This document shows positions 2 to 22,519 of a stretch of 28,588 nt of DNA, in pieces. The stretch comes from a virus, in the IMG/VR virus record IMGVR_UViG_3300020348_000131, positions 1-28,588 of that record; one strand, written 5' to 3'. A program made the position numbers and the translations under genes. The first letter of the stretch is position 1. The number at the start of each line of letters is the position of its first letter. The notes under the pieces were generated by a model. It was not told the DNA's origin and ran no database searches. It was given only the letters and a program-made list of their open reading frames with translations.

Positions 2-70
2 TTGAGTAAACCAATAGTAGTTGATGGTACAAATTTGATTGCAGGGAGACTTGCCTCTAAAGATCAATAA
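2..70 (+). other. Short reading-frame fragment at window edge, possible N-terminus of another gene
   Basis: The second frame is open from the window edge to a TAA at 68-70 and reads, from a possible TTG at 2, SKPIVVDGTNLIAGRLASK and then DQ and stop. The VVDGTNL..GRLAS pattern recalls two unrelated N-termini: the first strand of archaeal-type ribosomal protein uL13 (..DATNLILGRLAS..) and the first strand of PIN/FEN-type 5' nucleases (..VDGNNL..R..). Either way it stops after about 22 residues, so it would be a remnant, or the end of a gene that starts outside the window. The stretch is too short to decide, and chance is possible. Confidence 0.25.
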
Positions 71-92
71 TAAAAAGAAAAGAAACAAGAAA

Positions 93-560
93 ATGACAGC
101 AAGGGAGTTTCTTCAGTACTTTGGCACAGATGTTTGTAGAAAGATATATGACAACATCTGGGTTGATAGATGTATAGCAGATATAAAATTTGAAAATCCT
201 CTATTATCTATTGTGGATGACTGCCGATTCCCGAACGAGGCCGACGCTATACAAAGAGCAGGCGGAAAAGTCATCAGACTTACTAGGTCTCCACACCAAG
301 ACAGCCACGCAAGCGAGTCGGCATTGTCCGAGTGGGATAATTTTGATGCCGTAATAGACAACGAAGGCATGACAATACATGAGTCGTGCAAAGAGTTAAT
401 ACGAGTTCTAGGCGACTGGGGATGGCTAGGCAAAGAAACAACACTGCAACAGCCAAATGAGAAACTTGCTAAACACGTTCAAAGCGGAGAACCTGTTTCT
501 GAACCAGAGCCACAGCTTGTTGGGGGTATTCATACCATCAAAGAGGTTACTGGAGAATGA
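93..560 (+). CDS. Deoxynucleoside monophosphate kinase, C-terminal part (P-loop part missing)
   Basis: The product resembles the C-terminal part of phage dNMP kinases (T4 gp1 type), which phosphorylate dNMPs to dNDPs for DNA synthesis. Seen: REFLQYFGTDVCRK, matching the family's LMQALGTD.. helix; SIVDDCRFPNEADAI, matching the nucleotide-binding VPDTRQDHE.. strand; GGKVIRLTR; and a late DNEGM..ESCKELI segment. The family normally runs about 200-240 residues with a GxxxxGK P-loop near residue 10. Here there is no P-loop, and a TGA at 36-38 closes the frame upstream. I chose ATG 93; a TTG at 39 would add 18 Lys/Asn-rich residues unlike the family. The last about 35 residues are a Pro/Glu-rich tail. 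Its stop overlaps the next start (ATGA). It is either a truncated, probably inactive kinase, one half of a split kinase, or cut at an assembly or deletion junction. Confidence 0.7.
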   Translation: MTAREFLQYFGTDVCRKIYDNIWVDRCIADIKFENPLLSIVDDCRFPNEADAIQRAGGKVIRLTRSPHQDSHASESALSEWDNFDAVIDNEGMTIHESCKELIRVLGDWGWLGKETTLQQPNEKLAKHVQSGEPVSEPEPQLVGGIHTIKEVTGE

Positions 561-1586: not shown

Positions 1587-1742
1587 ATGGGTTACATTAT
1601 ATGTTCACTATGTATAGCGTCTTCTACATGGTTAGCTTTAGAAGATAAAGACGCTTGGACTTGGTTCTTAGTGGCTGGATTGTTTTTAGGTCTTAGTGCC
1701 ATAGGCAGCGACATAAAGCGAGCGGCAGGAACGCAGCAATGA
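1587..1742 (+). CDS. Small membrane protein, two predicted helices
   Basis: A 51-residue protein of unknown function. Residues about 2-18 (GYIICSLCIASSTWLAL) and 22-42 (DAWTWFLVAGLFLGLSAIG) are hydrophobic and long enough to cross the membrane, separated by a short acidic turn (EDKD). The C-terminus (SDIKRAAGTQQ) is polar. I chose ATG 1587 because GGGA at about 1573-1576 lies at a usable distance; a TTG at 1554 inside the nuclease gene would add 11 polar residues. Its TGA overlaps the ATG of the sulfotransferase gene. No lysis-gene motif (holin, spanin lipobox) can be claimed. Confidence 0.6.
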   Translation: MGYIICSLCIASSTWLALEDKDAWTWFLVAGLFLGLSAIGSDIKRAAGTQQ

Positions 1743-2437
1743 AGATTTTTCAAATAGGATTCAACAAGTGTGGTACATCAAGCTTATACCATTTCTTCAA
1801 AGGTAATGGCATTGCATCTGTTCATTGGAGATGGTGGCATGAAAGTGCCCACAAGTATGTCGCACTTGAAATGAAAAGAAACTATGAAAATGACCGCCCT
1901 CTTCTTGAGGGTATGGAAAACTTTGATTTCTATTCAGATATGGAGTCTCATTTAGACGGATTTGATGACGACTCGGACGATTACTTTCCCTGTGTTCATG
2001 CGTATATAAATTACTTCACAGAACTTGACAAACAATATCCAAATTCCAAGTTCATATTAAATCGTAGAAATCTAATTAAATGGATTAAAAGTAGGCAAAG
2101 CCATGTGTTTGGTAGTGGAAGAACCTATCTCGGTTCATACATGCATCATATGAAAATGACCGAAGAAGAAGTATTGACTTTATGGGAAAATCAGTGGAAT
2201 GCTCATATCAGTAATGTGCTAGAATACTTTAAGGACAGGCCGAATGATTTACTTGTCTTCAACATAGAAGAAGATGATGCTACTAAAATTAAAGACTTTT
2301 TCTCAGAAGATTTAGATTTAGATGTGTCACATTGGAAACAGCATAATCAAACAGGATCATTGATACCTATTACTATTACTGAGAAGGCAAAGAAGGATAA
2401 AAAAGGAAGAATTATACTGTGGAGCAGAGATGATTGA
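1739..2437 (+). CDS. Sulfotransferase family protein
   Basis: Probable PAPS-dependent sulfotransferase. The N-terminus, IFQIGFNKCGTSSLYHFF (residues 3-20), is the family's 5'-phosphosulfate-binding loop (G.pK.GTtSL) on the first strand. SKFILNRRNLIKWIKS (residues 103-118) matches the 3'-phosphate-binding strand and helix (kfIl..R.p..w..S). The 232-aa length fits the small bacterial Sulfotransfer families. These enzymes move sulfate from PAPS to hydroxyls on sugars, lipids or proteins. Given the glycan genes downstream, sulfation of a sugar is the most likely role here (inference). ATG 1739 overlaps the previous stop (ATGA) and the C-terminal 8 bp overlap the next gene. No PAPS-synthesis genes are visible, so the donor would come from the host. 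Confidence 0.8.
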   Translation: MKIFQIGFNKCGTSSLYHFFKGNGIASVHWRWWHESAHKYVALEMKRNYENDRPLLEGMENFDFYSDMESHLDGFDDDSDDYFPCVHAYINYFTELDKQYPNSKFILNRRNLIKWIKSRQSHVFGSGRTYLGSYMHHMKMTEEEVLTLWENQWNAHISNVLEYFKDRPNDLLVFNIEEDDATKIKDFFSEDLDLDVSHWKQHNQTGSLIPITITEKAKKDKKGRIILWSRDD

Positions 2438-2909
2438 AGTAGAAATAACACAAGACATGAAACAGCGAGCTTGGAGAAAGGCTCGTGAAATGGGAGAGAT
2501 AAACAACTCAATAACAAAGGGCGAGGGGAACATTGCGGGTTTTTTGGGTGAACAAGTTGCTAATGAAATAATAAAAGGTGACATAACCAACACTTACAGC
2601 TATGATATAGTAAAAGATGGAATTAGGTACGATGTCAAAACCAAGAGATGCACTAGCAAACCAAAAGATTATTACGAGTGTTCCATCGCCTCTTTACAAA
2701 AAAAGCAGGACTGTGATATATATGTATTTGTCAGACTAGAAAATATCAACGGTCGCTGGAAAAGGGCTTGGGTGCTTGGACAATACTATAAGCACAAATA
2801 TTTTGAAGATGCTAAGTTTCTGAAGAAGGGGCAGATTGACGGCGATAATAACTTTAGAGTTAAAGCGGACTGTTACAATATCGCTATCAGTGACTTAAAG
2901 AAGATATGA
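2430..2909 (+). CDS. PD-(D/E)XK nuclease-like protein
   Basis: A 159-aa protein with the layout of a small PD-(D/E)XK fold. There is a helix GNIAGFLGEQVANEII with Glu41, then YSYDIVKDGIRYDVKTKR with Asp59 and Asp68-Val-Lys70, then YYECSIAS and a strand with DIYVFVRLE. Glu..Asp..DxK is the usual catalytic order, so a nuclease activity is possible. I know similar proteins in phages, but no defined role. An SD-like GGAG at 2421-2424 lies five bases before ATG 2430, and the gene overlaps its upstream neighbour by 8 bp and its downstream one by 4 bp (ATGA). It could act in recombination, host DNA breakdown or defence; the context does not choose between these. Confidence 0.6.
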   Translation: MIEVEITQDMKQRAWRKAREMGEINNSITKGEGNIAGFLGEQVANEIIKGDITNTYSYDIVKDGIRYDVKTKRCTSKPKDYYECSIASLQKKQDCDIYVFVRLENINGRWKRAWVLGQYYKHKYFEDAKFLKKGQIDGDNNFRVKADCYNIAISDLKKI

Positions 2910-3499
2910 TTAAAAGAACTCACAAGAGCCATATACTTCAAGTGCTGAGAGACAACAGCACATGGCAAATATTAGATTTGGGATGTGGTCGGTTTGCTTG
3001 GGAAGAGGCACAAACTCTTTCTGATATAGTCGATCACACGGATCTATATCCAGAAAAACGTTTTGTTCAGTCGGACGCGGCTAATACCCCTTTTGATGAT
3101 AAGCAGTTCGATTTTGTCATAGCTAGTCATATAGCCGAACACATGCATGATCTAGATAAATTTTTAACAGAGCTGTCTAGGATTGCAAAGCGTGGCTACA
3201 TAGAGGTTCCTCTTCCCTTGTTCGATAACCTTACATATGGGAACAGAGAGGAGCACGTTTGGTGGATGAATTTTGATGACGTAAATATGAAACTAACAGC
3301 CGAACCCAAGGGGGTAGCAATACAGGCTAGAATTACGCCTGTCGAGCTAACAGTGCTTGAAGAATTTTTTAGACCCAGTATGGCATTAGAGCTATATTGG
3401 GAAGATAATATTGAGTGGAGTATTCGAGAAAGAAGTTTTCATCACATGATGGATTTATGGCCAGAGCCGCACTCGAATTACCACAGACCAGAAGGATAG
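2906..3499 (+). CDS. SAM-dependent methyltransferase (class I)
   Basis: The product has the Methyltransf_11-type Rossmann core. Motif I is ILDLGCGRFAWEEA (residues 22-35), an acidic strand end VDHTDLYP follows, QSDAANTPFDD matches the motif II/III region, and FDFVIASHIAEHMHDLDKFL is the typical post-motif segment before the helix (family: ..D.v.s..vleH..d....l.E..Rv). The rest (residues about 95-197) has conserved-looking Trp-rich stretches (EEHVWWMNF, ELYWEDNIEW) of unknown meaning. The substrate cannot be read from the sequence; a glycan or small molecule is more likely than DNA because no target-recognition or NPPY/DPPY motif is seen. The ATGA overlap couples it to the preceding gene. Confidence 0.8.
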   Translation: MIKRTHKSHILQVLRDNSTWQILDLGCGRFAWEEAQTLSDIVDHTDLYPEKRFVQSDAANTPFDDKQFDFVIASHIAEHMHDLDKFLTELSRIAKRGYIEVPLPLFDNLTYGNREEHVWWMNFDDVNMKLTAEPKGVAIQARITPVELTVLEEFFRPSMALELYWEDNIEWSIRERSFHHMMDLWPEPHSNYHRPEG

Positions 3500-3512
3500 G
3501 ACCGCACAGCAA

Positions 3513-5108
3513 ATGAATTCAAATTGGATACCACTAAATTGTAAAACACACTACAGTCTGCAAAAGGGTTTTTGCAAAAACAGCCTGCTTTCGGAAAGAT
3601 GTAAAGAGTATGAGTATAGTGCTTGCGGCATAGCAGATCTTGGAACGCTAGCTGGAGCTGTAGACTTCCATCAGCAGTGTAGAAAAAATGATGTCAAACC
3701 AATCATTGGTTGTGATTTTGACGGATACATTTTATATGCAAAGAATAAAGATGGCTGGTTTGACCTTATTAAGTATGTTTCAAATCAGAACTTGGATGTC
3801 TTAAAGGAAGTTTCCAAAAGGGGTAATCTGATTTGTGTGTCGCCTGACTCAAACGGTCTAAGAAAATTGTTTAAAAGCAATCACTTTGAATATGGGGCTA
3901 TGAATGATGATGCTGTTTACTATGTAGACAAAAGCGATGCGGATTGTCATAGGATCATGCTGTGCTCAGGTATGAAGACAACAATGAAGAAGGTAAACTC
4001 ATTACTAAAAAACAATCAAGAGGTTGCTAATCAGCACTTTTTTGAGAATGACAGCTTCTATCTACATGAGCCAAACAACAAAACGAACGACATAGATATG
4101 CTTAACAAAATAGCGAGCATGTGCGAAGACTACGAGGTTGCTGGAAAGCCGATGCTTCCAGCGTTTGACTGTCCAGAAGGAGTAGACGAAGATCAATATC
4201 TCACACAACTTTGTAGAGACGGATGGAGAGACAGGCTACAGGCTCAAAATAAAGTTTCTAGCGAGCAGGATAAAGACATTTACGCCGAGAGAATCAAGCA
4301 GGAGCTAAAGGTTATTATCAAGGCTGAACTATCTGGTTATTTTTTGATAGTTCAGGATATAGTTAACTTTGTCAAGAAGCAGGGTTGGTTAGCTGGTCCG
4401 GGACGAGGCTCTGCTGCTGGATGCTTGGTGTCATACCTGCTTAGTATAACAGACGTTGACCCTATTGAGTATGATTTGATTTTTGAGAGGTTCTACAATG
4501 AGGGAAGAAACACAGAAAACTACGTTTCCCTACCAGATATTGATATGGATGTTCCTGCCGAACACAGGGACGAAGTTATTGACTATATAAAATATAAATA
4601 CGGAGAAGAGAATGTAGCTCAGATGATCACATTTGGTCGCCTTCAGGGAAGAGCAGCCGTAAAAGAGGTACTAAGAATCAATGATGCTGTGTCATTTGCA
4701 GAAATGAATGCTATAACAGATAGTATCCCAGACGAAGCAAAGATATCTGACCAACTAGAATTAATGGAAGACAAGTCTATTATAAAATGGACACTAGAAA
4801 ACGAGCCAGAGAATCTCAAAAACTGGTGCATGATGAATGAGGACGGCGAACTAGAAGGCCCGCTGTCGCACCTGTTTGAGCAGGCTATAAAAATAGAAGG
4901 AACCAATAAGTCGCAAGGCAAACACCCAGCGGGCGTGATTATATCGGAACATAAACTCGCTCACGTATGTCCAATGACTGAAGATAAGTCAGGAGATACT
5001 GTTGCCGCCTTTGATATGGGCGACCTAGAGGTTCAGGGACATGTCAAGTTTGACGTGTTGGGAATTGATTTACTATCTAAGATAATGGAGATTTCAAATG
5101 CTGATTAA
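3513..5108 (+). CDS. dnaE: DNA polymerase III alpha subunit, N-terminal half (PHP + palm)
   Basis: N-terminal half of a bacterial-type C-family replicase. Residues about 7-215 form a PHP domain (LNCKTHYSLQKG, GIADLGTLAGAVDF, KPIIGCDF). Several metal ligands of active PHP domains are changed (for example Leu where ITDHG has His), so it is probably not a nuclease itself. The palm shows GWLAGPGRGSAAGCLVSYLL (291-310), LPDIDMD with catalytic Asp342 and Asp344 (E. coli D401/D403), ITFGRLQGRAAVKEV (372-386), QGKHPAGVIIS (468-478) and HVKFDVLGIDLL with Asp514 (E. coli D555). The protein ends 17 residues after Asp514, just where the fingers should begin; the missing part is encoded at 6685-8262. There are no intein motifs at the end. 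The 3' end overlaps the next gene by 11 bp. The two products must pair for polymerase activity (inference). Confidence 0.95.
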   Translation: MNSNWIPLNCKTHYSLQKGFCKNSLLSERCKEYEYSACGIADLGTLAGAVDFHQQCRKNDVKPIIGCDFDGYILYAKNKDGWFDLIKYVSNQNLDVLKEVSKRGNLICVSPDSNGLRKLFKSNHFEYGAMNDDAVYYVDKSDADCHRIMLCSGMKTTMKKVNSLLKNNQEVANQHFFENDSFYLHEPNNKTNDIDMLNKIASMCEDYEVAGKPMLPAFDCPEGVDEDQYLTQLCRDGWRDRLQAQNKVSSEQDKDIYAERIKQELKVIIKAELSGYFLIVQDIVNFVKKQGWLAGPGRGSAAGCLVSYLLSITDVDPIEYDLIFERFYNEGRNTENYVSLPDIDMDVPAEHRDEVIDYIKYKYGEENVAQMITFGRLQGRAAVKEVLRINDAVSFAEMNAITDSIPDEAKISDQLELMEDKSIIKWTLENEPENLKNWCMMNEDGELEGPLSHLFEQAIKIEGTNKSQGKHPAGVIISEHKLAHVCPMTEDKSGDTVAAFDMGDLEVQGHVKFDVLGIDLLSKIMEISNAD

Positions 5109-5325
5109 GGCCACTAAACAAGAATACAGGTCAGTGGTTTATTCTGGCTGCTATATAGAGTCTAAAGGTGTTTCATTGTGTAACCTAGAAGATTTCTTAA
5201 AAAACAGAATAGGAGTACCTAGAGCTAAATACCAAGTAGTCTCGGACAGAGACAGATTTCATGGACTTTTTCACACTCTAGACGAGGCCATTGACAAATT
5301 CATTGAACTAAAAACAAAAAGATAA
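5098..5325 (+). CDS. Hypothetical 75-aa protein between the DnaE halves
   Basis: A small, basic soluble protein I do not recognise with certainty. It has an N-terminal beta-rich part (ATKQEYRSVVYSGCYIES), a middle helix (NLEDFLKNRIGV) and a C-terminal part (KYQVVSDRDRFHGLFHTLDEAIDKFIELK), where the last helix resembles small phage proteins that end in ..LDEAvdKFieLK. ATG 5098 lies inside the last codons of dnaE-N (11-bp overlap), and only two bases separate its TAA from the next start, so it is translationally embedded in the replication block. A structural role in holding the polymerase halves together is conceivable but purely speculative. Confidence 0.6.
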   Translation: MLIKATKQEYRSVVYSGCYIESKGVSLCNLEDFLKNRIGVPRAKYQVVSDRDRFHGLFHTLDEAIDKFIELKTKR

Positions 5326-5327
5326 TT

Positions 5328-5972
5328 TTGAAGATTTCGCTTTGTATAACGTGCTATGATGAGGACGTGCATCTTTTGGATGCGTGTTTAGACTCCATGT
5401 CTCAACAAACCGTCAAGCCAGATGAAGTCATAGTCGTCTCTAGCGGGTTCGATTGGAATAAGAAAATAGGAAGCTCTAAAAGGCTAGACTATGTTGTTCA
5501 CAATTCACCATCTAGAAAGTTTGCGGGATGGGCAAGAAACAGCGGAGCAGACATAAGTACCGGAGACATCATAACGTTTTGTGATGTTGATGACAAGATG
5601 CATCCCCAAAGATGCGAATACATAAAAAATGTTTTCCGGAACCCACAGATATCAGCGTTGGTTGGCAGATATTATTTTGCCGAAGAGTTTAAAAGCTGGA
5701 AAGATCTTAACCTTGAGTTTGAAAATCTTCCAGTGGAAGTTAAAGAACATGATAAATGCCTCAAACCCCCGAATGGAGAGCGTGTTCATCATGGACATCT
5801 CACATGCAGGACAGATATGTTTTCCATTGGTAAAATGCGATACAAAGAGCACCAGAGAACAGGGCAGGATTCAGAATTTTGCGGAAGAATTTGCGACCAT
5901 CCAGACTATAAAATATTTCACACTCCGCAAGAGCTAACACTCTACTATCCGTCTGCGGAACGACATATCTAA
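5328..5972 (+). CDS. Family 2 glycosyltransferase (GT-A fold), TTG start
   Basis: GT2-like enzyme: an N-terminal strand KISLCITCYDEDVHLLDACL, then SMSQQTVKPDEVIVVSSG (canonical SI..QT..p.EiiVVdd), then RNSGADISTGDIITFCDVDDKM, where CDVDD carries the DxD metal and nucleotide-sugar motif near residue 88. Late GHLTCRTDMF and RTGQDSEFCGRI match the acceptor-side ED motif of the family. The 214-aa length is short but complete for a GT-A core. TTG 5328 is chosen because the first strand begins directly at it, and the next ATG lies past the nucleotide-binding strand. No strong SD precedes it, and the gene sits two bases after the previous stop, so coupled translation is likely. It is unusual in lying between two halves of a DNA polymerase. 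Confidence 0.85.
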   Translation: MKISLCITCYDEDVHLLDACLDSMSQQTVKPDEVIVVSSGFDWNKKIGSSKRLDYVVHNSPSRKFAGWARNSGADISTGDIITFCDVDDKMHPQRCEYIKNVFRNPQISALVGRYYFAEEFKSWKDLNLEFENLPVEVKEHDKCLKPPNGERVHHGHLTCRTDMFSIGKMRYKEHQRTGQDSEFCGRICDHPDYKIFHTPQELTLYYPSAERHI

Positions 5973-6008
5973 AAATACTACAAACAACAAAACCTTTAGG
6001 AGACACCC

Positions 6009-6695
6009 ATGAACTATAGAGACATTATTGTATTTGACTTTGAGACCGGAGGCAGAAATCCTCACAAGTGTCAACCAACACAAATTGCTGCGGTGGCGAT
6101 TCATGCTCGGAAGCTTACCTTACAACCGGGAGGAACTTTCAATAGTGAGATCAGGCCGATCATTGACGACGAAAAGGCTGTCGCTGCTGGATTCGACCCG
6201 CTTGAAGACGAGGCACTAGAAATTACTAGGAAAACCAGAGGGGCTTTAGCCAAAGCACCCCTACCAAAAACAGTATGGAAGAAGTTTGCCCAGTTCTGTG
6301 ACAAGTACAACTTTAAGAAGACAAGCTTCTCCGCACCTATTGCTGCTGGATACAACATCAACGGTTATGACATGCCCATTGTTGAGCGTATGTGTCAAAT
6401 GTATGGCCCAGTCGATGAGAAAAAAGGACGCCAGAAAATTTTCAATCCGATCTTCACTATGGATCTAATGCAGCATATCTACTGCTGGTTTGAAAACAAC
6501 TCAGATGTTAAGGGGTATAGCATGGACTATATGAGAGACTATTTTGGTATGCCTAAAGACAATGCTCACGATGCACTACAGGACGTAAAAGATACGGCGA
6601 ACATCTTAATCAAGTTCCTAAAGATGCAGAGAAACCTATCTAAAAAAATTAAGTTTGAAAAAACGTTCGCTAATGGTGATATGTATGTCGTTTAA
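6009..6695 (+). CDS. DnaQ-like 3'-5' exonuclease (proofreading, DEDDh)
   Basis: DEDDh exonuclease of the DnaQ/epsilon type. ExoI is IIVFDFETGG (Asp10, Glu12), ExoII is AAGYNINGYDMPIVERM (Asp121), and ExoIIIe is NAHDALQDVKDTANIL (His187, Asp192). The 228-aa length matches the epsilon subunit. The middle region DPLEDEALEITRKT is the usual element between ExoI and ExoII. Its place between dnaE-N and dnaE-C, with an 11-bp overlap into dnaE-C, makes it the likely proofreader of this polymerase; the PHP domain of the polymerase looks degenerate, which fits. No clear clamp-binding QxxLF peptide is seen. A good SD (AGGAGA, 5998-6003) precedes ATG 6009, after a 36-bp spacer with no other feature. Confidence 0.9.
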   Translation: MNYRDIIVFDFETGGRNPHKCQPTQIAAVAIHARKLTLQPGGTFNSEIRPIIDDEKAVAAGFDPLEDEALEITRKTRGALAKAPLPKTVWKKFAQFCDKYNFKKTSFSAPIAAGYNINGYDMPIVERMCQMYGPVDEKKGRQKIFNPIFTMDLMQHIYCWFENNSDVKGYSMDYMRDYFGMPKDNAHDALQDVKDTANILIKFLKMQRNLSKKIKFEKTFANGDMYVV

Positions 6696-8262
6696 TATTA
6701 ACAACTTTGAAGACGAGAAAGTTTGGGACTTAATCTGTGACGGAAACACAAAGGGTGTTTTTCAGTTAGAGTCTAGTCTAGGTAAACATTGGGCTAAAGA
6801 AGTCAGGCCTAGAAACGTAAAGGAGCTAGCGGCTTTAATTAGCCTAATTCGCCCCGGTTGTCTAAAGGCAAAAGACGCTGACGGAAAGAGTATGACGCAG
6901 GTATACGCTGATAGAAAGGCTGGTAAGCCTAATAGTCCTGTGGAGTATCTACATGAGTCTTTGGAACCTATTTTGAAAGAGACATATGGCGTTCTTGTTT
7001 ATCAGGAACAATCTATGAAGATAGCTCAGGTTCTGGCTGGATTCGATCTTAAAGAGGCGGACGCCTTGCGTAAAGCCATTGGTAAAAAGAAAGCGGATCT
7101 CATGGAGGCGGTTAAGGAGACCTTTCTAAAGGGAACGGAAAAGATGGGTATTGTAACACAAGAGGTGGCCGAGGAGCTTTTCTCTTGGATTGAAAAGTCC
7201 AATAGATATGCGTTCAATAAATCTCATGCTGTTTCATATGCCATCAACGCCTACTGGTCCGCCTATTGTAAAACCTATAGACTCAAAAAGTTTTATGAGA
7301 AATACCTAAATCGTGCAGATAGAAAGCCAAAGCCAGACATCGAGAAGAAGCAACTTATAATGGATGCCAGAAGATCGGATATAGATATTCTTCCTCCAAG
7401 GTTACAGCATCTACACACCAACTTTACAAGAAGCAACGATAAGGATGTTATCTACTTTGGTATGAGACACATCAAGAACGTTGGCATTAAAGAGTGTGAA
7501 AAAATCGAGAACATGCTGTCTGAGACAGACGTGTCAAATTATAGCTGGATGGATTCGCTGGTAAATATAATTTACAAATTAAATCTTAATAAGCGTTCTG
7601 TCATATCTCTCATATCTGTTGGGGCATTTAATGGGAAGTCCAACACCGAGAGCAGACAGAAGATGCTGTATGAGTTCGATAGTTGGAAGCAGCTTTCAGC
7701 TAGAGAGCAACAGGCGATAGCGGATAATCATAACAGTCAAGATCCCGCACTGTACGCAGAAGGACTTGCGGATGCAATATCACATATGTTAAAAACAATA
7801 AAGGTGAACTCCAGAAGAACCCCGACCGTGCTAGATATCAAAAACTCTTTGGAAAATCCGTTTTACGATTTAAACGATACAGCCGCTACAATAGCCACCG
7901 ACGAAGAAAAATATATGAGTTGTTCATTAACTTGCGATAAAATTGATGGAATACAACTAAATGTTGCTACTAATATGTGCAAAGACATAGCAAATGGCAC
8001 GATAACAGGTAAAGCGAATCTCGCTGCACAGATTGTATCTGTTAGAACTTATAAAACTAAACGTGGTAAAAACCCCGGCCAATTGATGGCCTTTTTGTGT
8101 GCTGAGGATGGAAGCGGCTCAGTTGATTCGATTACTGTTTTCCCAGAGTGTTATGAAAAACACAGGGATTTATTGATAGAAGGCAATACGGTACTAATGA
8201 TTGGCGAAACATCTAAGAAAGATAAAACATCGTTAATAGTCAATCAGGTATCACAAATTTGA
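6685..8262 (+). CDS. dnaE: DNA polymerase III alpha subunit, C-terminal half (fingers, HhH, OB)
   Basis: C-terminal half of DnaE. It begins just before the first fingers motif TKGVFQLESSLGKHW (residues 22-36; E. coli TTAVFQLES), then ALISLIRPG, YGVLVYQEQSMKIAQVLAGF, EADALRKAIGKKK and YAFNKSHAVSYAINAYW, all diagnostic of C-family fingers. It continues with a DILPP..FGMRHIKNVGIKECEKI helix-hairpin-helix region (about 245-265) and a C-terminal OB fold (about 435-525: ITGKANLAAQIVSVRTYKTK.. to the end). I chose ATG 6685, which overlaps the exonuclease by 11 bp; a TTG at 6655 would add 10 residues. The cyanobacterial DnaE split-intein site lies inside this half at Y.FNKSH and is uninterrupted, so the split here is of a different kind. 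No obvious beta-clamp motif was found. Confidence 0.95.
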   Translation: MSFNINNFEDEKVWDLICDGNTKGVFQLESSLGKHWAKEVRPRNVKELAALISLIRPGCLKAKDADGKSMTQVYADRKAGKPNSPVEYLHESLEPILKETYGVLVYQEQSMKIAQVLAGFDLKEADALRKAIGKKKADLMEAVKETFLKGTEKMGIVTQEVAEELFSWIEKSNRYAFNKSHAVSYAINAYWSAYCKTYRLKKFYEKYLNRADRKPKPDIEKKQLIMDARRSDIDILPPRLQHLHTNFTRSNDKDVIYFGMRHIKNVGIKECEKIENMLSETDVSNYSWMDSLVNIIYKLNLNKRSVISLISVGAFNGKSNTESRQKMLYEFDSWKQLSAREQQAIADNHNSQDPALYAEGLADAISHMLKTIKVNSRRTPTVLDIKNSLENPFYDLNDTAATIATDEEKYMSCSLTCDKIDGIQLNVATNMCKDIANGTITGKANLAAQIVSVRTYKTKRGKNPGQLMAFLCAEDGSGSVDSITVFPECYEKHRDLLIEGNTVLMIGETSKKDKTSLIVNQVSQI

Positions 8263-8269
8263 AAGGAAT
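8261..8269 (+). promoter_or_regulatory. Shine-Dalgarno site supporting a GTG start
   Basis: GAAAGGAAT lies just after the dnaE-C stop and three bases before GTG 8273. The AGGA core to start distance is about six bases. It supports GTG as the SSB-like start; no ATG exists in frame near it. Confidence 0.55.
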
Positions 8270-8272
8270 AAA

Positions 8273-8578
8273 GTGAATAAATGTCATTTTTTAGGGAAGC
8301 TTGATGGAGAACCGGATGTATACATCGAAAAGGGCGTGTCAGTAATAAGATTTACATTGGAAGTAGAAGAGTATAGGAAGGGGCGAGACGGAGAAAAAAT
8401 AAGATCCTTCACCTATTTAGAGTTTGAAGCTTGGGATACCGCAGCTAAAGCTATAAAAAAATACGCATATCCCGACTGTATGATTGCTGTAGAGGCAATT
8501 GCAAGAAATGACGACTCGTCAGAAAACGATATGGACATAGTTTTTAGAGTAACAAGTTTTAAAATTTTGCACGGTTGA
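8273..8578 (+). CDS. Single-stranded DNA-binding protein-like (OB fold)
   Basis: A 101-aa protein with the pattern of bacterial SSB OB folds: NKCHFLGKLDGEPDVYIEK (family N.v.LiG.l..dP), SVIRFTLEVEEY, SFTYLEFEAWDTAAKAIKKY (f....w...Ae....y) and CMIAVEAIARND (v.veG.l....). It would coat single-stranded DNA at the fork, which fits its position straight after dnaE-C. It is shorter than E. coli SSB (178 aa) and ends with FRVTSFKILHG: the acidic, Phe-terminated tail that recruits partners in bacterial SSBs is absent. GTG start with SD GAAAGGAAT. It closes the replication block; the glycan genes start 11 bp later. Confidence 0.75.
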   Translation: MNKCHFLGKLDGEPDVYIEKGVSVIRFTLEVEEYRKGRDGEKIRSFTYLEFEAWDTAAKAIKKYAYPDCMIAVEAIARNDDSSENDMDIVFRVTSFKILHG

Positions 8579-8589
8579 TTGGTAATTAA

Positions 8590-10230
8590 ATGAGAAAGAA
8601 GAAAGTTCTTTTTGTTTCCGAGGCATCTTGGAAAAAAACGGGATACTCTACGTACACAAGAGAAATTCTTACTAGACTAAGCCAAGTAGATTCTCTTGAG
8701 GTGGCAGAACTGGCCTGCTATGCTTCTTCTGCTGACCCAGAAGTTTACAATAGGCCTTGGAAAGTTTATCCCAACAAGCCGCTAAAAGACTCTCCAGAGT
8801 TTGCTTCGTATTACGGAAGACCTACGGCTGTATTTGGTGAACAGACGTTTAACTCTGTGGTGCTAGACTTTATGCCGGATGTCGTGATGGATATCCGTGA
8901 CTGGTGGATGTTTGAATATCAGCAGAGGTCGCCATTTAGAGATATGTTTCACTGGGCGATCATGCCTACCGTAGATGCTGCACCCCAGAATCCACAATGG
9001 ATAAACACCTTCCGGTCGGCGGATTCGGTTTTTGCATACTCGGAGTTTGGTAGAGATACAATGCTTGAGCAATGTAATGATATCAACTTCATCAACATTG
9101 CGTCTCCGGCGGCTAGTCAGGACTTTTTTCCAGCAGAAGACAAGGCTGCACACAAAGACAAAATGGGAATCGACCCTACCTGCAATATCGTGGGTACGGT
9201 AATGAGAAACCAAAGAAGAAAACTCTATCCCGATTTATTCAAGGCCTTTAGAAAATATCTCGATCAGACCAAAGATCCAGACACATTCCTATACTGCCAT
9301 AAATACTATCCAGATATCGGATGGGAAACCCCCAAGCTTCTTGATGAATTTGGATTAAACAACAGAGTATTGTTTACTTACAAATGTACCAAATGCGGAC
9401 ACTTGCATATGGACTTTTTTCAAGACTGTGTTGGCTACTGTAGTAATTGTGGGACACTTAATCGGACTCTGGCTGGACTAGAAAATCCAGTAAACGATCA
9501 AGAGCTTAATAGTATATACAACGTATTTGACTTGTATGTTCAGTATGCAAACAGCGAGGGATTTGGGATGCCTCAGCTTGAAGCGGCTTATGCTGGAGTT
9601 CCTGTGGTGTCTACATACTACTCCGCTATGGAATCCGTAGTGGACAATATAGATGGATATAAAGTTCCACCCCTTTCTTATTCTATGGAATGTGAAACAG
9701 GGTGCTACAGAGCAATCCCAGATAATGATCACTTCGTGGAACTACTGAAAACATTGATAAAAAACAAAGACGCCTTAAGGCCGAAAGGTCTACAGATAGC
9801 AAAAACAGCAAGGCAGAAGTATAGCTGGGATAAGACGGCAGATGTTTGGCTGAAGCATATAGAGTCGATTGAGCTTAGAGACCCAAAAGACACTTGGCTG
9901 TCTGCTCCAGATATTCGTACACCAGCAACTGGTATACCTTCTGACATTATAGACATGACAGACAAGGTGAACTTTATATTCAACAACATACTATATAAAC
10001 CGGAATGGATAGGTGGATATCTGTGGTCTAAAATACTTAGAGACTGTACCTACAAATATAGAGTTCGTAATCTAGATGACAACTTTTACTTCAACGAGTC
10101 ACATCTAGGCTCGATGGATAAGTATGAAAGTTTCTCTTTTGAGGCAGCGTGTAATGAGATGATAAACTTCAGGAATCAGATCAATGAATGGGAGCAGCTA
10201 AGGGGACAAATGATTGGAGCAATGGTATGA
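8590..10230 (+). CDS. GT4-type glycosyltransferase with inserted zinc-ribbon motif
   Basis: GT-B fold, family 4-like. The N-domain begins KKVLFVSEASWKKTGYSTYTREIL (GT4 glycine-loop region). The C-domain shows VGTVMRNQRRKLYPDLFKAF (about 201-220) and NSEGFGMPQLEAAYAGVPVVST with the EX7E pair Glu323/Glu331 that binds the donor's phosphates and ribose. Unusual: between VLFTYK and the EX7E region sits CTKCG..C..YCSNCG (Cys266, 269, 280, 284, 287), a CxxC..CxxC zinc ribbon not normal for GT4. After residue about 425 there is a further about 120-aa extension (from DPKDTWLSAPDIRTP to the end) without known motifs, which could bind acceptor or partner. The gene opens the large glycan island, and its stop overlaps the next start (ATGA). 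Confidence 0.85.
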   Translation: MRKKKVLFVSEASWKKTGYSTYTREILTRLSQVDSLEVAELACYASSADPEVYNRPWKVYPNKPLKDSPEFASYYGRPTAVFGEQTFNSVVLDFMPDVVMDIRDWWMFEYQQRSPFRDMFHWAIMPTVDAAPQNPQWINTFRSADSVFAYSEFGRDTMLEQCNDINFINIASPAASQDFFPAEDKAAHKDKMGIDPTCNIVGTVMRNQRRKLYPDLFKAFRKYLDQTKDPDTFLYCHKYYPDIGWETPKLLDEFGLNNRVLFTYKCTKCGHLHMDFFQDCVGYCSNCGTLNRTLAGLENPVNDQELNSIYNVFDLYVQYANSEGFGMPQLEAAYAGVPVVSTYYSAMESVVDNIDGYKVPPLSYSMECETGCYRAIPDNDHFVELLKTLIKNKDALRPKGLQIAKTARQKYSWDKTADVWLKHIESIELRDPKDTWLSAPDIRTPATGIPSDIIDMTDKVNFIFNNILYKPEWIGGYLWSKILRDCTYKYRVRNLDDNFYFNESHLGSMDKYESFSFEAACNEMINFRNQINEWEQLRGQMIGAMV

Positions 10231-10805
10231 GTGAACTTGATTTTAGTTACGCTGAAGCATTGTTGCAGCATAAGGAAGGCGAGTTTGAATTTGTGGGGGA
10301 TGTCAAGGTAAGGGACTCATTATTTCAGGATCTATTATCCACCTTTAGTGGCCCTATAAAAGTATTTCAAGTGGGTGCTATAGAGTCTCTCGACGGAAGG
10401 TTTAGAGTGGGCTCTGGTTGGAGTGACACCTTTTTTGGTGATTATATACTGAAGAATGGAGGCTCCCTAACGATTGCCGACATAAATCTAGATCATTTAG
10501 CACACTCATTTTTAGTTGCAAGGAGCAGAGGATATGACCTGCAATTAAAGCTTGGGGACGCTATCAACCATATAAAATCGGGGTACGATATCTATTATCT
10601 AGACGGAGCGGATGAGCCACTAGGACACCAACAAACCCTAGAACAGTTTCAAAGAATAGAAACAACCAAATCGCTGGTGATCGTTGATGATGTTGAAACC
10701 AAGGCACGACTTTTACAGCAGTATCTCAAGGCAAACGAAATAAACTTTACTTTCCATGATATCGGAAACGGCGGAATGATTACAGTAGATATGAGGGAAC
10801 ATTAA
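10227..10805 (+). CDS. Class I SAM methyltransferase-like protein
   Basis: A 192-aa protein with a Rossmann-type core: IKVFQVGAIESLDGRFRVGSGWSDTFF (motif I position, about 45-72), GGSLTIADINLDHLAHSF with an acidic residue after the second strand, LKLGDAINHIKSGYDIYYLDGADEPLGHQQ (motif III/IV-like, with a Y.LDGaDe strand end as in Methyltransf_24) and KSLVIVDDVETKARLLQQYL. The glycine-rich motif I is weak (QVGAIES), so loss of SAM binding or another Rossmann function is possible. The start is ATG 10227, which overlaps the upstream stop (ATGA) and follows GGAG at 10216-10219; an earlier in-frame GTG or ATG would only read into the upstream gene. It overlaps the next gene by one base (TAATG). Confidence 0.65.
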   Translation: MSELDFSYAEALLQHKEGEFEFVGDVKVRDSLFQDLLSTFSGPIKVFQVGAIESLDGRFRVGSGWSDTFFGDYILKNGGSLTIADINLDHLAHSFLVARSRGYDLQLKLGDAINHIKSGYDIYYLDGADEPLGHQQTLEQFQRIETTKSLVIVDDVETKARLLQQYLKANEINFTFHDIGNGGMITVDMREH

Positions 10806-11494
10806 TGCAAAAAGAAAAGAGGGTCATTTGGGCCGACACCTACGACAAAGATGACATAAAATATAGCTTTGATTTTTCTCAGTTTAGTCAGGACTGGGTT
10901 ATAAATAGAATACTTGATATTGATGAAGGATTCTTTTTGGACATAGGTGCTGGTGTCAGCGACTTAAATGCCGAAGAAGTTATCATTAGCTGCATGAGCA
11001 ACACCTATGGTCTAGAAAGGTTTAGAGACTGGAACGGAATAGCAATAGATTATGACGATGTATACATAAGGGAAGCAAACAAATTTCGTTCATGTACGCT
11101 CGTCTGCGAGGATCTCATGAAAACAAATATAAACGAGATACTAAAACAGCACGACGCCCCACAAAAAATGGACTATCTTTCTTTTGACGTTGACGCAGCA
11201 CAAGAGAAGGTATTGGAAGACTTGGATTTATCTACATATAGCTTTCGAGCAATAACTTTTGAGCACAACCTGCACCTAAGTTTTCAGGATGACAACTGGA
11301 AGAAAGTGCACAGAGACTCTAGAGACAAATTTATTTCTTCAGGGTATAAAATACTTTTTGGCAACGTTGGTCTTCATCCGAATCAGCCAGTAGAAGACTG
11401 GTATGTTGATCAAGAAACATTTGACAAATATGAGAAGATTTCTTCTGAAAACCTAACCAGAGACCAGATTATAGGGAAAATACTTAGGGCATGA
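10805..11494 (+). CDS. FkbM-like methyltransferase
   Basis: The FkbM family methylates sugar hydroxyls, among other substrates. Seen: EGFFLDIGAGVSDLNAEEVI (motif I, about residues 41-60), GIAIDYDDVYIREA (acidic residue that binds the SAM ribose), CTLVCEDLMKTN, and MDYLSFDVDAAQEKVLEDLDL followed by FRAITFEHN. The last pair is the FkbM hallmark (IDFLsiDvEG.E..vL.gld ... i..iEhN), with Asp-Ala-Ala in place of Glu-Gly-Ala. Length 229 aa. It probably acts on a sugar made or transferred by the neighbouring glycosyltransferases. It is coupled upstream (TAATG) and downstream (ATGA). Confidence 0.8.
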   Translation: MQKEKRVIWADTYDKDDIKYSFDFSQFSQDWVINRILDIDEGFFLDIGAGVSDLNAEEVIISCMSNTYGLERFRDWNGIAIDYDDVYIREANKFRSCTLVCEDLMKTNINEILKQHDAPQKMDYLSFDVDAAQEKVLEDLDLSTYSFRAITFEHNLHLSFQDDNWKKVHRDSRDKFISSGYKILFGNVGLHPNQPVEDWYVDQETFDKYEKISSENLTRDQIIGKILRA

Positions 11495-12600
11495 AAGTAC
11501 TATATATAGGAAACTACCGAGACGGTACGGGATGGGCGAACGCCTGTGCCGGTAACATATTAGCACTAGATGCTGCGGGAGTAGAGGTTGTTCCGAGGGC
11601 TATAAGCTTTAATTCTCAGGACACAGAGTATCCACAAAGAATCAAAGAGCTGGAGGCAAAATATAGCTCTAGAAGCAGTAACAATGACTGCGATACTGTT
11701 ATACAGCACACCTTGCCGCATTTGTACTGCTACAATTCAGCGTACAAGAACATAGGATTTTTTGATAGCGAGTCTCACGACTTTTCTATGACTGCATGGC
11801 ACTATTATGCTAACATGATGGATGAGATATGGGTTCCTAGTCAACAGAATCTAGAAGCCGCACGAAGAAGCGGTGTCAAGGTTCCTATAAAGATCGTGCC
11901 GCACTCTATAGACATCGACAGTTATTCAAATGGATTCTTCACTAAAAGCAGAGGAAGAAAAATTCAACAGATGGAGGACTCGTTTACTTTTGGGTTTGTT
12001 GGCGAGTTTATAGAAAGAAAGAATCTAAAAGCTTTAGTTCAGGCTTTTCACATAGAGTTTGACCCAAGAGAGCCTGTTAATCTTTTTATAAAAACATCTA
12101 GGGCAGACTTGGATACAGTACAGGGATATTGCACAGCCGTAAAGGACGGCCTTAAGATAAGAAGTAAATACAAGGAAGAAATTGTACTAGCTGGAATCCT
12201 GCCAAAAGATGATTACATCTCAGTCATGGGTCAGATAAACTCTTTTGTTATGCCTAGCAGGGGAGAGGCGTTCTGCATTCCAGCGTTAGAGGCTATGGCA
12301 CTAGGTATTCCGGCCATATATACAGATGGTATCGGAATGGACTTCTGTGTTGGAACGCCTGTAAAGTCTAGACTTACGCCATGTTTTGGTGCCGTTGATA
12401 CGCTTCCAGACATAGATACTGCCGAGACATTATGGTCAGAAATAGATATTTTAGAGTTGTCAAAAGCTATGCGTGATGCATATAATAAGTATCATACTAA
12501 TGACGAAAAAGAACGAAGGCAGGAGTGCCTGTCTACGGCCAAAAATTTTGATCACCAATCAGTGGGAAAAATAATGAAGGAGTTATTGAGTGACAGCTAA
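11491..12600 (+). CDS. Family 4 glycosyltransferase
   Basis: A complete GT-B enzyme of 369 aa. The N-domain begins MKVLYIGNYRDGTGWANACAGN, a GT4-like loop after strand 1. The inter-domain part is KIVPHSIDIDSYS (about 135-147), and the C-domain has FTFGFVGEFIERKNLKALVQAF (about 164-185) and MPSRGEAFCIPALEAMALGIPAI with the EX7E pair. The donor is unknown; GT4 enzymes take UDP-, GDP- or other NDP-sugars with retention of configuration. The last 11 bp, including a strong GAAGGAG, serve the next gene. Confidence 0.9.
   Translation: MKVLYIGNYRDGTGWANACAGNILALDAAGVEVVPRAISFNSQDTEYPQRIKELEAKYSSRSSNNDCDTVIQHTLPHLYCYNSAYKNIGFFDSESHDFSMTAWHYYANMMDEIWVPSQQNLEAARRSGVKVPIKIVPHSIDIDSYSNGFFTKSRGRKIQQMEDSFTFGFVGEFIERKNLKALVQAFHIEFDPREPVNLFIKTSRADLDTVQGYCTAVKDGLKIRSKYKEEIVLAGILPKDDYISVMGQINSFVMPSRGEAFCIPALEAMALGIPAIYTDGIGMDFCVGTPVKSRLTPCFGAVDTLPDIDTAETLWSEIDILELSKAMRDAYNKYHTNDEKERRQECLSTAKNFDHQSVGKIMKELLSDS
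12576..12582 (+). promoter_or_regulatory. Shine-Dalgarno site supporting a GTG start inside the upstream gene
   Basis: GAAGGAG lies seven bases before GTG 12590, inside the coding region of the preceding glycosyltransferase. It decides the start of the next gene and implies coupled translation. Confidence 0.6.
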
Positions 12601-13648
12601 TGCCAACAGAAGATCTATAAGGTCTTTAATGCGAAAAGTTCGGCGTGGAGACAAGCTGAACATTCTTACATTTGCGACCCACGAGAGATATGAAGAAAAC
12701 CTATGCAAAACGGGTCATGAGTTTTATTCTCTCCGATACGGAAAAGAATGGGACACATCGTATGCTGAAGTTCCGCAGAACTATCACATCATTGACACGC
12801 TTCCTGATTATGTTGATTTTGATCTGGTCTTGAGTCATACAAGCTGCAATAGGATTGAGGTTGTACACGATCTACTCTCTGGAACATATGGATCTCAAAC
12901 AAACAGAATTTCGATACCAATTCTTAGGCATTGCCATGTTTTACCCGATATCCGTTTTGACACAAAGCAAGAAATAAACGCTTTTCAATCTATACCGGTA
13001 GATCAAAACTCCTTCATATCAGACTTTAATAAGAAGGCGTGGGGATGCGATAAGGGGATCGTAATAGAGCACGGAATAGACACAGAATTTTGGAACTACG
13101 ACAAGGAAGCTGAAAGAAAAAACACCTGTCTATCTGTAGTCAACGAATGGCCAAGCAGAGACTGGTGCTGCGGTTTTAATCTTTGGAGAGAGACCAGTGG
13201 GAGACTTCCTGTTACAGTCGTTGGGAAATGTACCGGCAGAAACGAGGGCTTCTCTGAGCCTGCCAGAGACGCAAGTCATCTTAGACAAATATATCAAAAC
13301 TCAAGAATTTTTTATAACACATCAATACACTCGCCCGTTCCCACTGTGTTGCTGGAAGCTATGGCCTGTGGGTGTGCGGTTGTTTCCACAGAAACATGCA
13401 TGATTCCAGAGATTATAGAGCACGGCAAAAATGGATTCATATCAAACAACAAGAACGAACTTAGATCGTTTCTAGAGCTATTACTAAAAGACGAGGATCT
13501 AGCCAAGAAACTAGGAGCCGAAGCAAGAAAAACTATATGCGAGAGATACGGTTTAGATCCGTTTATAGAGAAGTGGAACGATCTATTATACAATACAGTG
13601 GAAAATTATACAGACACAATGGAGGTCTCTAATGAAAGCCTATCTTAG
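12590..13648 (+). CDS. Family 4-like glycosyltransferase
   Basis: A 352-aa GT-B protein. The N-domain LNILTFATHERYEENLCKTG lacks the usual glycine loop but keeps the first strand. GIVIEHGIDTEFWNY (about 156-170) is the typical HGVD..F.p linker, and SPVPTVLLEAMACGCAVVST with GKNGFIS following is the donor-binding C-domain (E..AMa.G.pvv.t...i.e.i..g.nG). The chain ends with the normal C-terminal helix region. GTG 12590 follows a strong GAAGGAG; the first about 22 residues are Arg-rich and precede the first strand, so an internal start is a weaker option. It is probably the next enzyme in the same chain-assembly pathway. Confidence 0.85.
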   Translation: MTANANRRSIRSLMRKVRRGDKLNILTFATHERYEENLCKTGHEFYSLRYGKEWDTSYAEVPQNYHIIDTLPDYVDFDLVLSHTSCNRIEVVHDLLSGTYGSQTNRISIPILRHCHVLPDIRFDTKQEINAFQSIPVDQNSFISDFNKKAWGCDKGIVIEHGIDTEFWNYDKEAERKNTCLSVVNEWPSRDWCCGFNLWRETSGRLPVTVVGKCTGRNEGFSEPARDASHLRQIYQNSRIFYNTSIHSPVPTVLLEAMACGCAVVSTETCMIPEIIEHGKNGFISNNKNELRSFLELLLKDEDLAKKLGAEARKTICERYGLDPFIEKWNDLLYNTVENYTDTMEVSNESLS

Positions 13649-14054
13649 TCAGAGCCAGACCGGAGATGATTCGTTTAAGCATTTTAGTAACATAGCATCA
13701 TTCTCTAGAGGAGTCCTTGATAGTGAGGCACAGGAAATTGTATGCGATAGATTTTTGTCGTCGTTTTCATATTCTGAAACCGAGAAGCTTCTAGAGATTA
13801 TATTTAAGAAGATGAGGACAGGCTGTCAGTTAACCATAATTGAGCCAGACTTCTATTTGATATCAAAACATCTTTTCAAAGACAGCGTGCATATAGATAT
13901 TATTAACGGAATTGTTTTTAAGGACAATGTTATAAAATGTATGCTGACAATGGATAAAATAGCGGGAATGATAAACCCCGCTTTAGACGTGATCGAAAAA
14001 CATTTTGACGAACAGTCATGTGTCTCCATAATAAAAATAAGGAGAAACAAATGA
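13632..14054 (+). CDS. Methyltransferase-like protein lacking SAM motif I
   Basis: A 140-aa protein resembling the back half of a Methyltransf_11-type enzyme. DSEAQEIVCDRFLSSFSYSE (about 30-49) corresponds to the s.d.ei....vleh.s..e segment, and LEIIFKKMRTGCQLTIIEPDF to the L.ei.r.LkpGG.l.i..pd strand. The usual front third with the glycine-rich SAM-binding motif is missing. It starts at ATG 13632 with SD GGAGG at 13621-13625, so it is translated as a separate protein. It may be a remnant or a non-catalytic partner. Some phage sugar clusters carry short proteins of this look, so a family of its own is also possible. Confidence 0.5.
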   Translation: MKAYLSQSQTGDDSFKHFSNIASFSRGVLDSEAQEIVCDRFLSSFSYSETEKLLEIIFKKMRTGCQLTIIEPDFYLISKHLFKDSVHIDIINGIVFKDNVIKCMLTMDKIAGMINPALDVIEKHFDEQSCVSIIKIRRNK

Positions 14055-14863
14055 GTCAGACGCTGAAAACAAATTGCAAGGGCTGTGTTTTTGCTCAAAC
14101 AAATAAAGAGAAAACCCAGATGGGATGCAGTCTCGGGAGGCACGAAAAGCTTGGTGTTGACAAGCTTGAAGAAAAAAACTTTATCACCAGTCGTTTCTGT
14201 AATACATATCGTCCTGAAGAGTGGTTTAACGATTTGGATTTAGAAGAATCCATGAATCCAGAATTGACGGTATTGGATGAGGTCTATCCCCGTCTCTGCC
14301 TATTTATAAGACTAAAAACAGAAATAGACAAGGGAAGAAACGAGTCGATACAGTCTTTAGAAGTGACCCTAGATAGTCTATTAGAGATTGACGATCCGAA
14401 TATAGCCTCGGTAGCCGTGATCACAGACAAGGTAGAGTATAACGAACAAATATGGGACGCCCTACACAAAAGACTCGGAGAGTCAGATACAAAATATCAC
14501 GTTGTACAGATGAGTTTTACTCCTGAAGATATGGAGCTATTGATGGACGCTTCATTCCAACATGCACAAAATGGCTGGATACGCTCAGTTGAAAGCGGCG
14601 ACACTATTCCTAAAAATATACTTAGTGTGATTCATAAGGCCGTTAACGAAGATATGTTGCAACTGCTGATGATAGATGCAGATAACTTCTTTTCTGGTCT
14701 GACATTTCCTTCGTTTCTGTTTAAGTTTTTAAACGGCAATAAACCAAAAGTTTTTGAAGATACCAGCTCGATCACTGGCACGTTTGTAGACAAATTGAAA
14801 TCAGCAGAGAAAAAATCGGGAACAAAAACAATATATAGCTGGGAGGAACTAAATGCTTCCTAA
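14051..14863 (+). CDS. Protein with N-terminal four-cysteine motif and possible GT-like domain
   Basis: A 270-aa protein. The N-terminus NCKGCVFAQ..K.QMGCSLGR..FCNTYR puts Cys9, Cys12, Cys26 and Cys50 in a C-x2-C-x13-C-x23-C pattern, suited to a zinc or Fe-S site. I recall a similar N-terminus in proteins from marine phages, without a proven function. The remainder alternates strands and helices (PRLCLFIRLK, IASVAVITDKVEY, KYHVVQMSF, NEDMLQLLMIDADNFFSG); the LMIDAD element near residue 205 resembles the DxD strand of a GT-A fold, and it lies between two glycosyltransferases. I call it a possible glycosyltransferase only. The start is ATG 14051, after AAGGAG; the longer GTG frame from 14018 overlaps the previous gene and has no better signal. 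Confidence 0.55.
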   Translation: MSQTLKTNCKGCVFAQTNKEKTQMGCSLGRHEKLGVDKLEEKNFITSRFCNTYRPEEWFNDLDLEESMNPELTVLDEVYPRLCLFIRLKTEIDKGRNESIQSLEVTLDSLLEIDDPNIASVAVITDKVEYNEQIWDALHKRLGESDTKYHVVQMSFTPEDMELLMDASFQHAQNGWIRSVESGDTIPKNILSVIHKAVNEDMLQLLMIDADNFFSGLTFPSFLFKFLNGNKPKVFEDTSSITGTFVDKLKSAEKKSGTKTIYSWEELNAS

Positions 14864-15581
14864 AGTAGCAATAATATGTGCGAACTACAACTATGGTGAA
14901 TATGTTATAGATGCCGTGAAAAGCATTGACAACCAGACATACGCTGGGCCTATTAGAATATTTTTGGTCGATGACGGATCTTCTGATAACTCTTGGAAAA
15001 AGCTAAAGGAATACAAAGAGTCAAAAGAAGACAAAGATAAGTATTGCTTTATGAGAATCAAAAACTCCGGAGCATCGGTGGCCAGAAACGTGGCGATTAA
15101 TGAGGCTTGGGAATGGGCAGACATATTTGGAGTACTGGACGCTGACGATGCCTATCTTCCCGAAAAAGTAGAAAAGCTTGTCGAAAAGCTTGTCGAATAC
15201 GAAGAAGTAGGAGTGGCATACGCGGACTACAAAAATGTGTTTCCAGAATATTCAAAGACGGAATTCAAACCTTCTTACAATAAAGTGAAGCTACTTAATA
15301 AGTGCATTGTTCATAGCAACTCGTTAATTAAAAAGAAATATTTAGAAAAGATCCGGCTTCCTAACGGAGAGTTTTTTGACAGCAGGCTTCATGGCCCAGC
15401 CAGTCAGGGCTTTATAGGTTGTACGGAAGATTACGATCTCTGGATAAGACTTGCTAATCACTGCATTATGACACACGTACCAGAGTGTCTAGGTATTGCA
15501 AATCAACACGGAAACAACCAGTCAATGAAAATGACTCCAGAGATATTTAGAGAGCAGGCAAGGATTTTAGGTTCTAGATAA
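14853..15581 (+). CDS. Family 2 glycosyltransferase
   Basis: A typical GT2 of 242 aa: KVAIICANYNYGEYVIDAVKS (about 4-24), DNQTYAGPIRIFLVDDGSSD (26-45), NSGASVARNVAINEAWEWAD and IFGVLDADDAYLPEKVEK with the DADD motif near residue 98. The acceptor-side GCTEDYDLWIRLA (about 195) carries the ED pair. ATG 14853 has a strong SD (GGGAGGA at 14841-14847). A tandem 12-bp repeat inside the gene duplicates EKLV at about residues 107-114. The final A of its TAA stop is the first base of the next ATG (TAATG). Confidence 0.92.
   Translation: MLPKVAIICANYNYGEYVIDAVKSIDNQTYAGPIRIFLVDDGSSDNSWKKLKEYKESKEDKDKYCFMRIKNSGASVARNVAINEAWEWADIFGVLDADDAYLPEKVEKLVEKLVEYEEVGVAYADYKNVFPEYSKTEFKPSYNKVKLLNKCIVHSNSLIKKKYLEKIRLPNGEFFDSRLHGPASQGFIGCTEDYDLWIRLANHCIMTHVPECLGIANQHGNNQSMKMTPEIFREQARILGSR
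15171..15194 (+). repeat. Tandem 12-bp duplication inside a GT2 gene
   Basis: GAAAAGCTTGTC occurs twice in a row and encodes EKLVEKLV in frame. It keeps a helix in phase and looks like a recent slippage event with no frame effect. Confidence 0.85.
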
Positions 15582-22448: not shown

Positions 22449-22454
22449 AAAATG

Positions 22455-22482: not shown

Positions 22483-22519
22483 GGTAGTGTTTAGCTAAGA
22501 CATTGAGAATGGAGACATC

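What the first reader, a model, noticed from the sequence alone, without database searches (positions are those of the whole stretch)
3513..8262. DNA polymerase III alpha is split into two genes with a proofreader and a glycosyltransferase in between
The first part ends 17 residues after the third catalytic aspartate (Asp514) and the second begins at the fingers motif TKGVFQLES. Together they cover a whole DnaE with no overlap or loss. The cyanobacterial dnaE split (intein, at Y/CFNKSH) is elsewhere, and no intein ends are present, so the two chains would have to assemble without covalent joining. The break lies between the palm and the fingers, which is an unusual place, and the gap holds the DnaQ-like exonuclease, a 75-aa protein and a GT2 enzyme.
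Basis: partly seen in the sequence, partly recalled or inferred. Interest (0 to 1): 0.78.

Follow-up and report, generated by a model that had tools for sequence, protein, structure and literature searches.

The report
Phage DNA polymerase in two genes
A large group of uncultured phages builds its copying enzyme, a bacterial-type DNA polymerase III, from two separately coded proteins cut at the border between palm and fingers, with the proofreading gene between them and no known way to join the pieces covalently.

Summary
Gene A (3513-5108, 531 aa) carries PHP, palm and thumb with all three catalytic aspartates. Gene B starts at ATG 6685 and carries fingers, HhH and OB fold (525 aa). This is neither decay nor an assembly fault: about 155 IMG/VR contigs show A, exonuclease, B. 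In 157 of 157 loci with both motifs, A and B are in different open frames. The 40 sampled members form one clade (SH-aLRT 100), so the break most likely arose once. Synonymous sites are saturated while proteins are conserved. Nine relatives of 125-167 kb hold no family A or B polymerase; ten of 89-154 kb hold only this one C-family set. No intein half fits at the A/B edges, although the clade uses split inteins at two other dnaE sites, so A/B most likely assembles non-covalently. Corrections: GT2 is a recent passenger; a linker of about 7-11 residues and the tau-binding C terminus are missing; p75 is common but not universal. Phage DnaE genes split at other points exist in deposited records, and a split minimal Pol III is published for jumbo phages. 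So: a new variant of a known kind, with one origin and a palm/fingers break.

The parts
3513..5108 (+). DnaE-A: degenerate PHP domain, palm (PDIDMD and D514) and thumb; stop 17 aa after Asp514
   Evidence: Pfam PF07733 3.6e-74, PF02811 2.1e-14; AlphaFold2 pLDDT 90.5 alone, best PDB matches are DnaE; 40-member clade
5098..5325 (+). p75: conserved 70-90 aa protein overlapping the end of A; alpha-beta-beta-alpha-beta-beta-alpha model; function unknown
   Evidence: kept between A and exo in most of the clade, not detected in one sub-clade; no Pfam, PDB or clear viral fold match
5328..5972 (+). GT2 glycosyltransferase (TTG start), passenger gene, not part of the polymerase
   Evidence: Pfam PF00535; at this place only in window/L011, L007, L077
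6009..6695 (+). DnaQ-like DEDDh exonuclease (DFETG ... HDALQDVKD), probable proofreader
   Evidence: Pfam RNase_T 6.8e-16, PHROG 'DNA polymerase exonuclease subunit' 3.5e-23; present between A and B in every locus where A and B were both found
6685..8262 (+). DnaE-B: fingers, HhH, OB fold; ATG start overlapping the exo stop
   Evidence: Pfam PF17657 6.3e-44, PF14579; NF004226 588-1060; start position kept in close relatives
8273..8578 (+). SSB (GTG start), next gene of the same replication run
   Evidence: Pfam PF00436 2.6e-6; found after B in nearly all loci that extend far enough

Best explanation
The phage encodes a working C-family replicase whose alpha subunit is two polypeptides: A (PHP, thumb and the complete catalytic palm) and B (fingers, HhH, OB). 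Shown here: the break is in one monophyletic lineage, both halves and the exonuclease stay together and stay conserved, no intein half or intron model is found at the break, and no other family A, B or C replicase is seen in long relatives. Inferred: the genes are translated together from one transcript (overlapping or abutting ends), A and B dock through the palm/fingers contact that is internal in ordinary DnaE, and the DEDDh exonuclease joins through A's eroded PHP domain to give a core of A, B and exonuclease. Also inferred: the break arose by gene fission, perhaps helped by homing endonucleases, at a linker where no covalent rejoining was needed.
For: A-exo-B order in about 155 viral contigs and 5 MAG-binned contigs, never fused. 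One clade, SH-aLRT 100, one change on the tree. pS 0.79-0.93 against pN 0.08-0.15 for A and B. A and B distances co-vary, r 0.94, best of 2000 permutations 0.46. One pol3_alpha and one finger hit per relative; no PolB, and no PolA in the viral contigs; DnaB present. A's tail after the third Asp is 15-43 aa and B's nearest Met is typically 16-26 aa before TKGVFQLE: no room for intein halves. In the same clade real split inteins are easily seen, at GPGRG|SAAG in L145 and FNK|SHA in L074/L075. A alone is predicted to fold confidently. Rfam finds no intron.
Against: No biochemistry; a two-chain model could not be run. All members are uncultured. The long relatives are not certified complete, so a second replicase of an unknown kind, or use of the host's, is not excluded. 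No beta-clamp family hit, so processivity is unexplained.
Confidence: 0.8

Rival explanations
1. A and B are joined covalently by an undetected route (trans-spliced RNA, a cryptic split intein, or ribosomal bypassing).
For: The clade does carry split inteins elsewhere in dnaE.
Against: A ends with a stop and B begins with its own conserved start; the tails beyond the conserved core are only a few residues and vary; no Rfam intron; the distance from A's stop to the fingers motif varies from 713 to 3233 nt and holds other conserved genes.
Confidence: 0.06
2. The halves are decaying remnants; the phage uses another or the host polymerase.
For: PHP of A has lost its metal motif in the window's sub-clade.
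Against: Saturated synonymous but low amino-acid change; invariant catalytic Asp and fingers motifs; no PolA or PolB in nine long viral contigs; one origin kept across a deep clade.
Confidence: 0.03
3. The split is a fossil of a fractured gene: a split intein plus homing endonuclease once sat at the A/B break, later lost once the halves could self-assemble. This concerns origin, not present function, and can be true together with the best explanation.
For: Live fractured-gene states in the clade: L074/L075 (split intein with a stand-alone NUMOD3/DUF559 nuclease), L145 (split intein), L168 (LAGLIDADG gene in a further break of A). Nucleases now lie in the A/B gap: Endonuclease_7 in L027, HNH_3 in L032, MUG113/T5orf172 in L038.
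Against: No sampled locus keeps an intein at A/B; the break is in a poorly conserved linker, unlike the intein sites, which are conserved motifs. Nucleases in the gap may have come later.
Confidence: 0.35
4. p75 is a dedicated bridge that holds A, B and exo together.
For: Conserved place and family in most loci.
Against: Not detected in a sub-clade that keeps the same split; no fold match.
Confidence: 0.12

Closest known systems
Bacterial DnaE (PolIII alpha), E. coli/Taq/Mtb structures 2hnh, 2hpi, 7pu7
   Same: Domain order, catalytic PDID.D and KFD motifs, fingers motifs, fold of A
   Different: Two chains; short linker, part of PHP and tau-binding C terminus missing; PHP metal motif lost in the window's sub-clade
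Split dnaE of cultured phages: Tenacibaculum phage Larrie, Bacillus phage Jayan, Microbacterium phage Kate
   Same: DnaE in two neighbouring genes
   Different: Broken elsewhere: before PDID.D (A335|339 and A332|342) and near A205; they fall outside this clade; no exo gene between the halves
Split minimal Pol III of jumbo phage group 2.2 (PMC7824862)
   Same: Pol III catalytic part in two proteins thought to reconstitute one enzyme
   Different: Reported as distant genes, minimal catalytic part only, next to a family B polymerase; our A and B profiles find nothing in PTm1 (no positive control)
Split dnaE of cyanobacteria (split intein)
   Same: DnaE made from two genes
   Different: There joined by protein splicing; at A/B no intein half exists. 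The FNK|SHA split intein of L074/L075 is the nearest parallel
Split PolA of OM43 phages MEP401/402 (PMC10580990)
   Same: Phage replicase in two genes with a small gene between
   Different: Family A; the authors suspect an intron

Membership tests
C-family DNA polymerase, DnaE type | PF07733 and PF17657 domains over cut-off in DnaE order | tested here: met
   both far above gathering score; collinear on NF004226
C-family DNA polymerase, DnaE type | Three catalytic aspartates | tested here: met
   D344, D346, D514 invariant in alignment A3
C-family DNA polymerase, DnaE type | Single polypeptide alpha subunit | tested here: not met
   157/157 loci not in one frame
C-family DNA polymerase, DnaE type | DNA synthesis activity | not testable with these tools
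   needs purified proteins
Split-intein (fractured) dnaE | N- and C-intein halves at the break | tested here: not met
   A tail 15-43 aa after last Asp, no Hint/intein match in window A or B; positive controls L074/L075/L145 do match
Split-intein (fractured) dnaE | Homing endonuclease gene between the halves | tested here: inconclusive
   none in the window; nuclease genes present in the gap of L027, L032, L038
DnaQ-type proofreader (DEDDh) | Exo motifs DxE, D, HxxxxD | tested here: met
   PF00929 6.8e-16; DFETG and HDALQDVKD in sequence
Jumbo-phage group 2.2 split minimal Pol III (PMC7824862) | Minimal catalytic part in distant genes beside PolB | tested here: not met
   near-complete DnaE, adjacent genes, no PolB in 9 long viral relatives

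The most novel reading that the evidence does not exclude
The separate fingers/OB subunit is not just tolerated but used: a modular core in which B, with the exonuclease coded directly before it, can load onto or leave the palm subunit, giving a regulated or exchangeable C-family replicase unlike any described.
Probability: 0.15. Interest if true: 0.85.

Novelty: new variant of a known kind. Interest (0 to 1): 0.57.

Why it matters
It defines a widespread, uncultured phage lineage whose only visible replicase is a two-subunit DnaE cut between palm and fingers. It gives a natural test of whether the C-family active site can be built from two chains. The clade also shows further breaks of the same gene at several stages (split inteins with and without a nuclease gene, a nuclease gene alone, bare fission), so it is a good place to study how essential genes become multi-gene.

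Tried and rejected
Assembly error or chance: rejected by about 155 contigs. Second polymerase: none found. Group I/II intron: no Rfam hit at gathering threshold in the window and seven loci. p75 as a known clamp, bridge or theta-like subunit: no sequence or fold match. GT2 as part of the enzyme: rejected, only 4 loci. Jumbo group 2.2 comparison through PTm1: no match with our profiles, so the exact break there could not be mapped. Host from MAG contigs (Flavobacteriales, SAR202, Alphaproteobacteria, Verrucomicrobiales, Lokiarchaeota): contradictory, probably misbinned phage contigs. Dassa 2009 (fractured genes) could not be read (not held); used from memory only. The first motif count (31 loci) used too narrow a pattern and was replaced. 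dN/dS ratios could not be given because dS was saturated. A two-chain structure prediction was not possible with the tool (single chains only).

Full report
What is there. The window is a 28,588-base virus record, identical from 2430 to 8575 to the 138.5 kb contig behind L011. Gene A (3513-5108) holds PHP, palm and thumb and stops 17 residues after Asp514. Gene B starts at ATG 6685 and holds fingers, HhH and OB fold. B's longer TTG start in the ORF list is unlikely, because close relatives keep the M-S-F-N/D-I start. On the NCBIfam DnaE model A runs to position 568 and B from 588 to 1060 of 1146. A short linker and the tau-binding end are therefore missing, and part of the PHP domain is too (A135 aligns to E. 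coli 202).

The split is real and old. A search with B found 80 viral contigs at 47-100% identity, and a wider one 80 more (five contigs recur). In every locus where A and B were both found the order is A, exonuclease, B. In 157 loci with both motifs A and B are never in one frame. Of 80 loci from GTDB genomes 73 are fused, ordinary DnaE at about 28-40% identity; the near relatives L166-L170 are split too, and L171 is cut off before A. In a tree of 72 polymerases the 40 sampled split members form one group with support 100. The relation to the Bacteroidetes phages next to it rests on long branches and is unsure. No cultured phage falls near: best identity is about 31%.

It is under selection. 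Against four close relatives synonymous sites are saturated (pS 0.79-0.93 for A, B and exo) while pN is 0.13-0.15 for A, 0.08-0.13 for B and 0.05-0.08 for the exonuclease. A and B distances correlate at 0.94. Ten relatives of 89-154 kb carry one pol3_alpha and one finger domain each. Nine viral contigs of 125-167 kb carry no family A or B polymerase but do carry DnaB. No beta-clamp family hit was seen.

What holds it together. After the last catalytic Asp there are 15-43 residues and a stop, and B has its own start, so no intein half fits. Controls inside the clade show that inteins would be seen: L074 and L075 carry a split intein at FNK|SHA of B with a stand-alone nuclease gene between the halves, and L145 carries one at GPGRG|SAAG of A. 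L168 has a LAGLIDADG gene in a further break of A, near the PDID.D motif. In L074, L075 and L145 the polymerase thus comes from three genes, with one junction that has intein halves and the palm/fingers junction that has none. I infer non-covalent assembly at A/B; this is not shown. Gene ends overlap or nearly abut at most A/p75 and many exo/B borders, which fits coupled translation.

The other genes in the gap. The exonuclease is constant and has DEDDh motifs. p75 is present in most of the clade, and BLAST-missed copies were found in L076 and L081, but in the sub-clade of L135-L165 no p75 was detected (L149 and L157 in that number range belong to the p75-bearing group). Its AlphaFold2 model (pLDDT 85.6) matches nothing convincing. 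The GT2 gene is at this place only in the window/L011, L007 and L077; other loci carry sugar enzymes or nucleases there, so the gap is an insertion site.

PHP erosion. L066, L076, L078 and L081 have a longer PHP domain with the HLH metal motif; the window's sub-clade has NCKTH instead and a shorter domain. All are split and all have the exonuclease. Loss of the PHP metal site with a separate exonuclease at hand agrees with DnaQ-based proofreading (inference).

Comparison with what is known. Deposited phage records already contain DnaE in two genes: Tenacibaculum phage Larrie, Bacillus phage Jayan and Microbacterium phage Kate, broken at about A335, A332 and A205. A split minimal Pol III is published for jumbo phages (PMC7824862), and a split PolA for OM43 phages (PMC10580990). 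I found no paper on a palm/fingers split (open-access library only). The finding is therefore a new variant of a known kind, strengthened by its single origin, its spread and its link with repeated breakage of the same gene.

Noticed in passing
L074:3560-6443; L075:6170-9026: B broken a second time at FNK|SHA by a split intein (CLSPKT... / ...FYGDGIxTSN) with a stand-alone DUF559-type nuclease gene (NUMOD3 in L074) between the halves; very near the cyanobacterial dnaE intein site.
   Followed up: yes
L145:2346-4311: A broken at GPGRG|SAAG by a split intein without a nuclease gene between the halves.
   Followed up: yes
L168:1942-4935: A broken near PDID.D with a LAGLIDADG gene between and about 90 odd residues at the start of the second part; no intein seen.
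   Followed up: partly
window 8590-24329: Long run of sugar and modification genes: several glycosyltransferases, NAD epimerase, FkbM methyltransferase, cupin/lyxose isomerase-like, formyltransferase; perhaps a glycan island in a phage.
   Followed up: partly
window 1739-2437: Sulfotransferase-like gene (Sulfotransfer_4, 5.6e-11) just upstream of the replication genes, unusual in phages.
   Followed up: no
window 39-560 and 557-1579: Deoxynucleotide monophosphate kinase-like ORF and a PD-(D/E)XK exonuclease-like gene upstream.
   Followed up: no
L169, L170 (Lokiarchaeota MAG), L167 (SAR202 MAG), L166 (Flavobacteriales MAG): MAG contigs carrying this phage-type split dnaE; binning probably wrong, or true host links, unresolved.
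   Followed up: no
alignment A3, residues 8-19 of A: PHP metal motif intact in L066/L076/L078/L081 but lost in the window's sub-clade: PHP erosion in lineages that are already split.
   Followed up: partly
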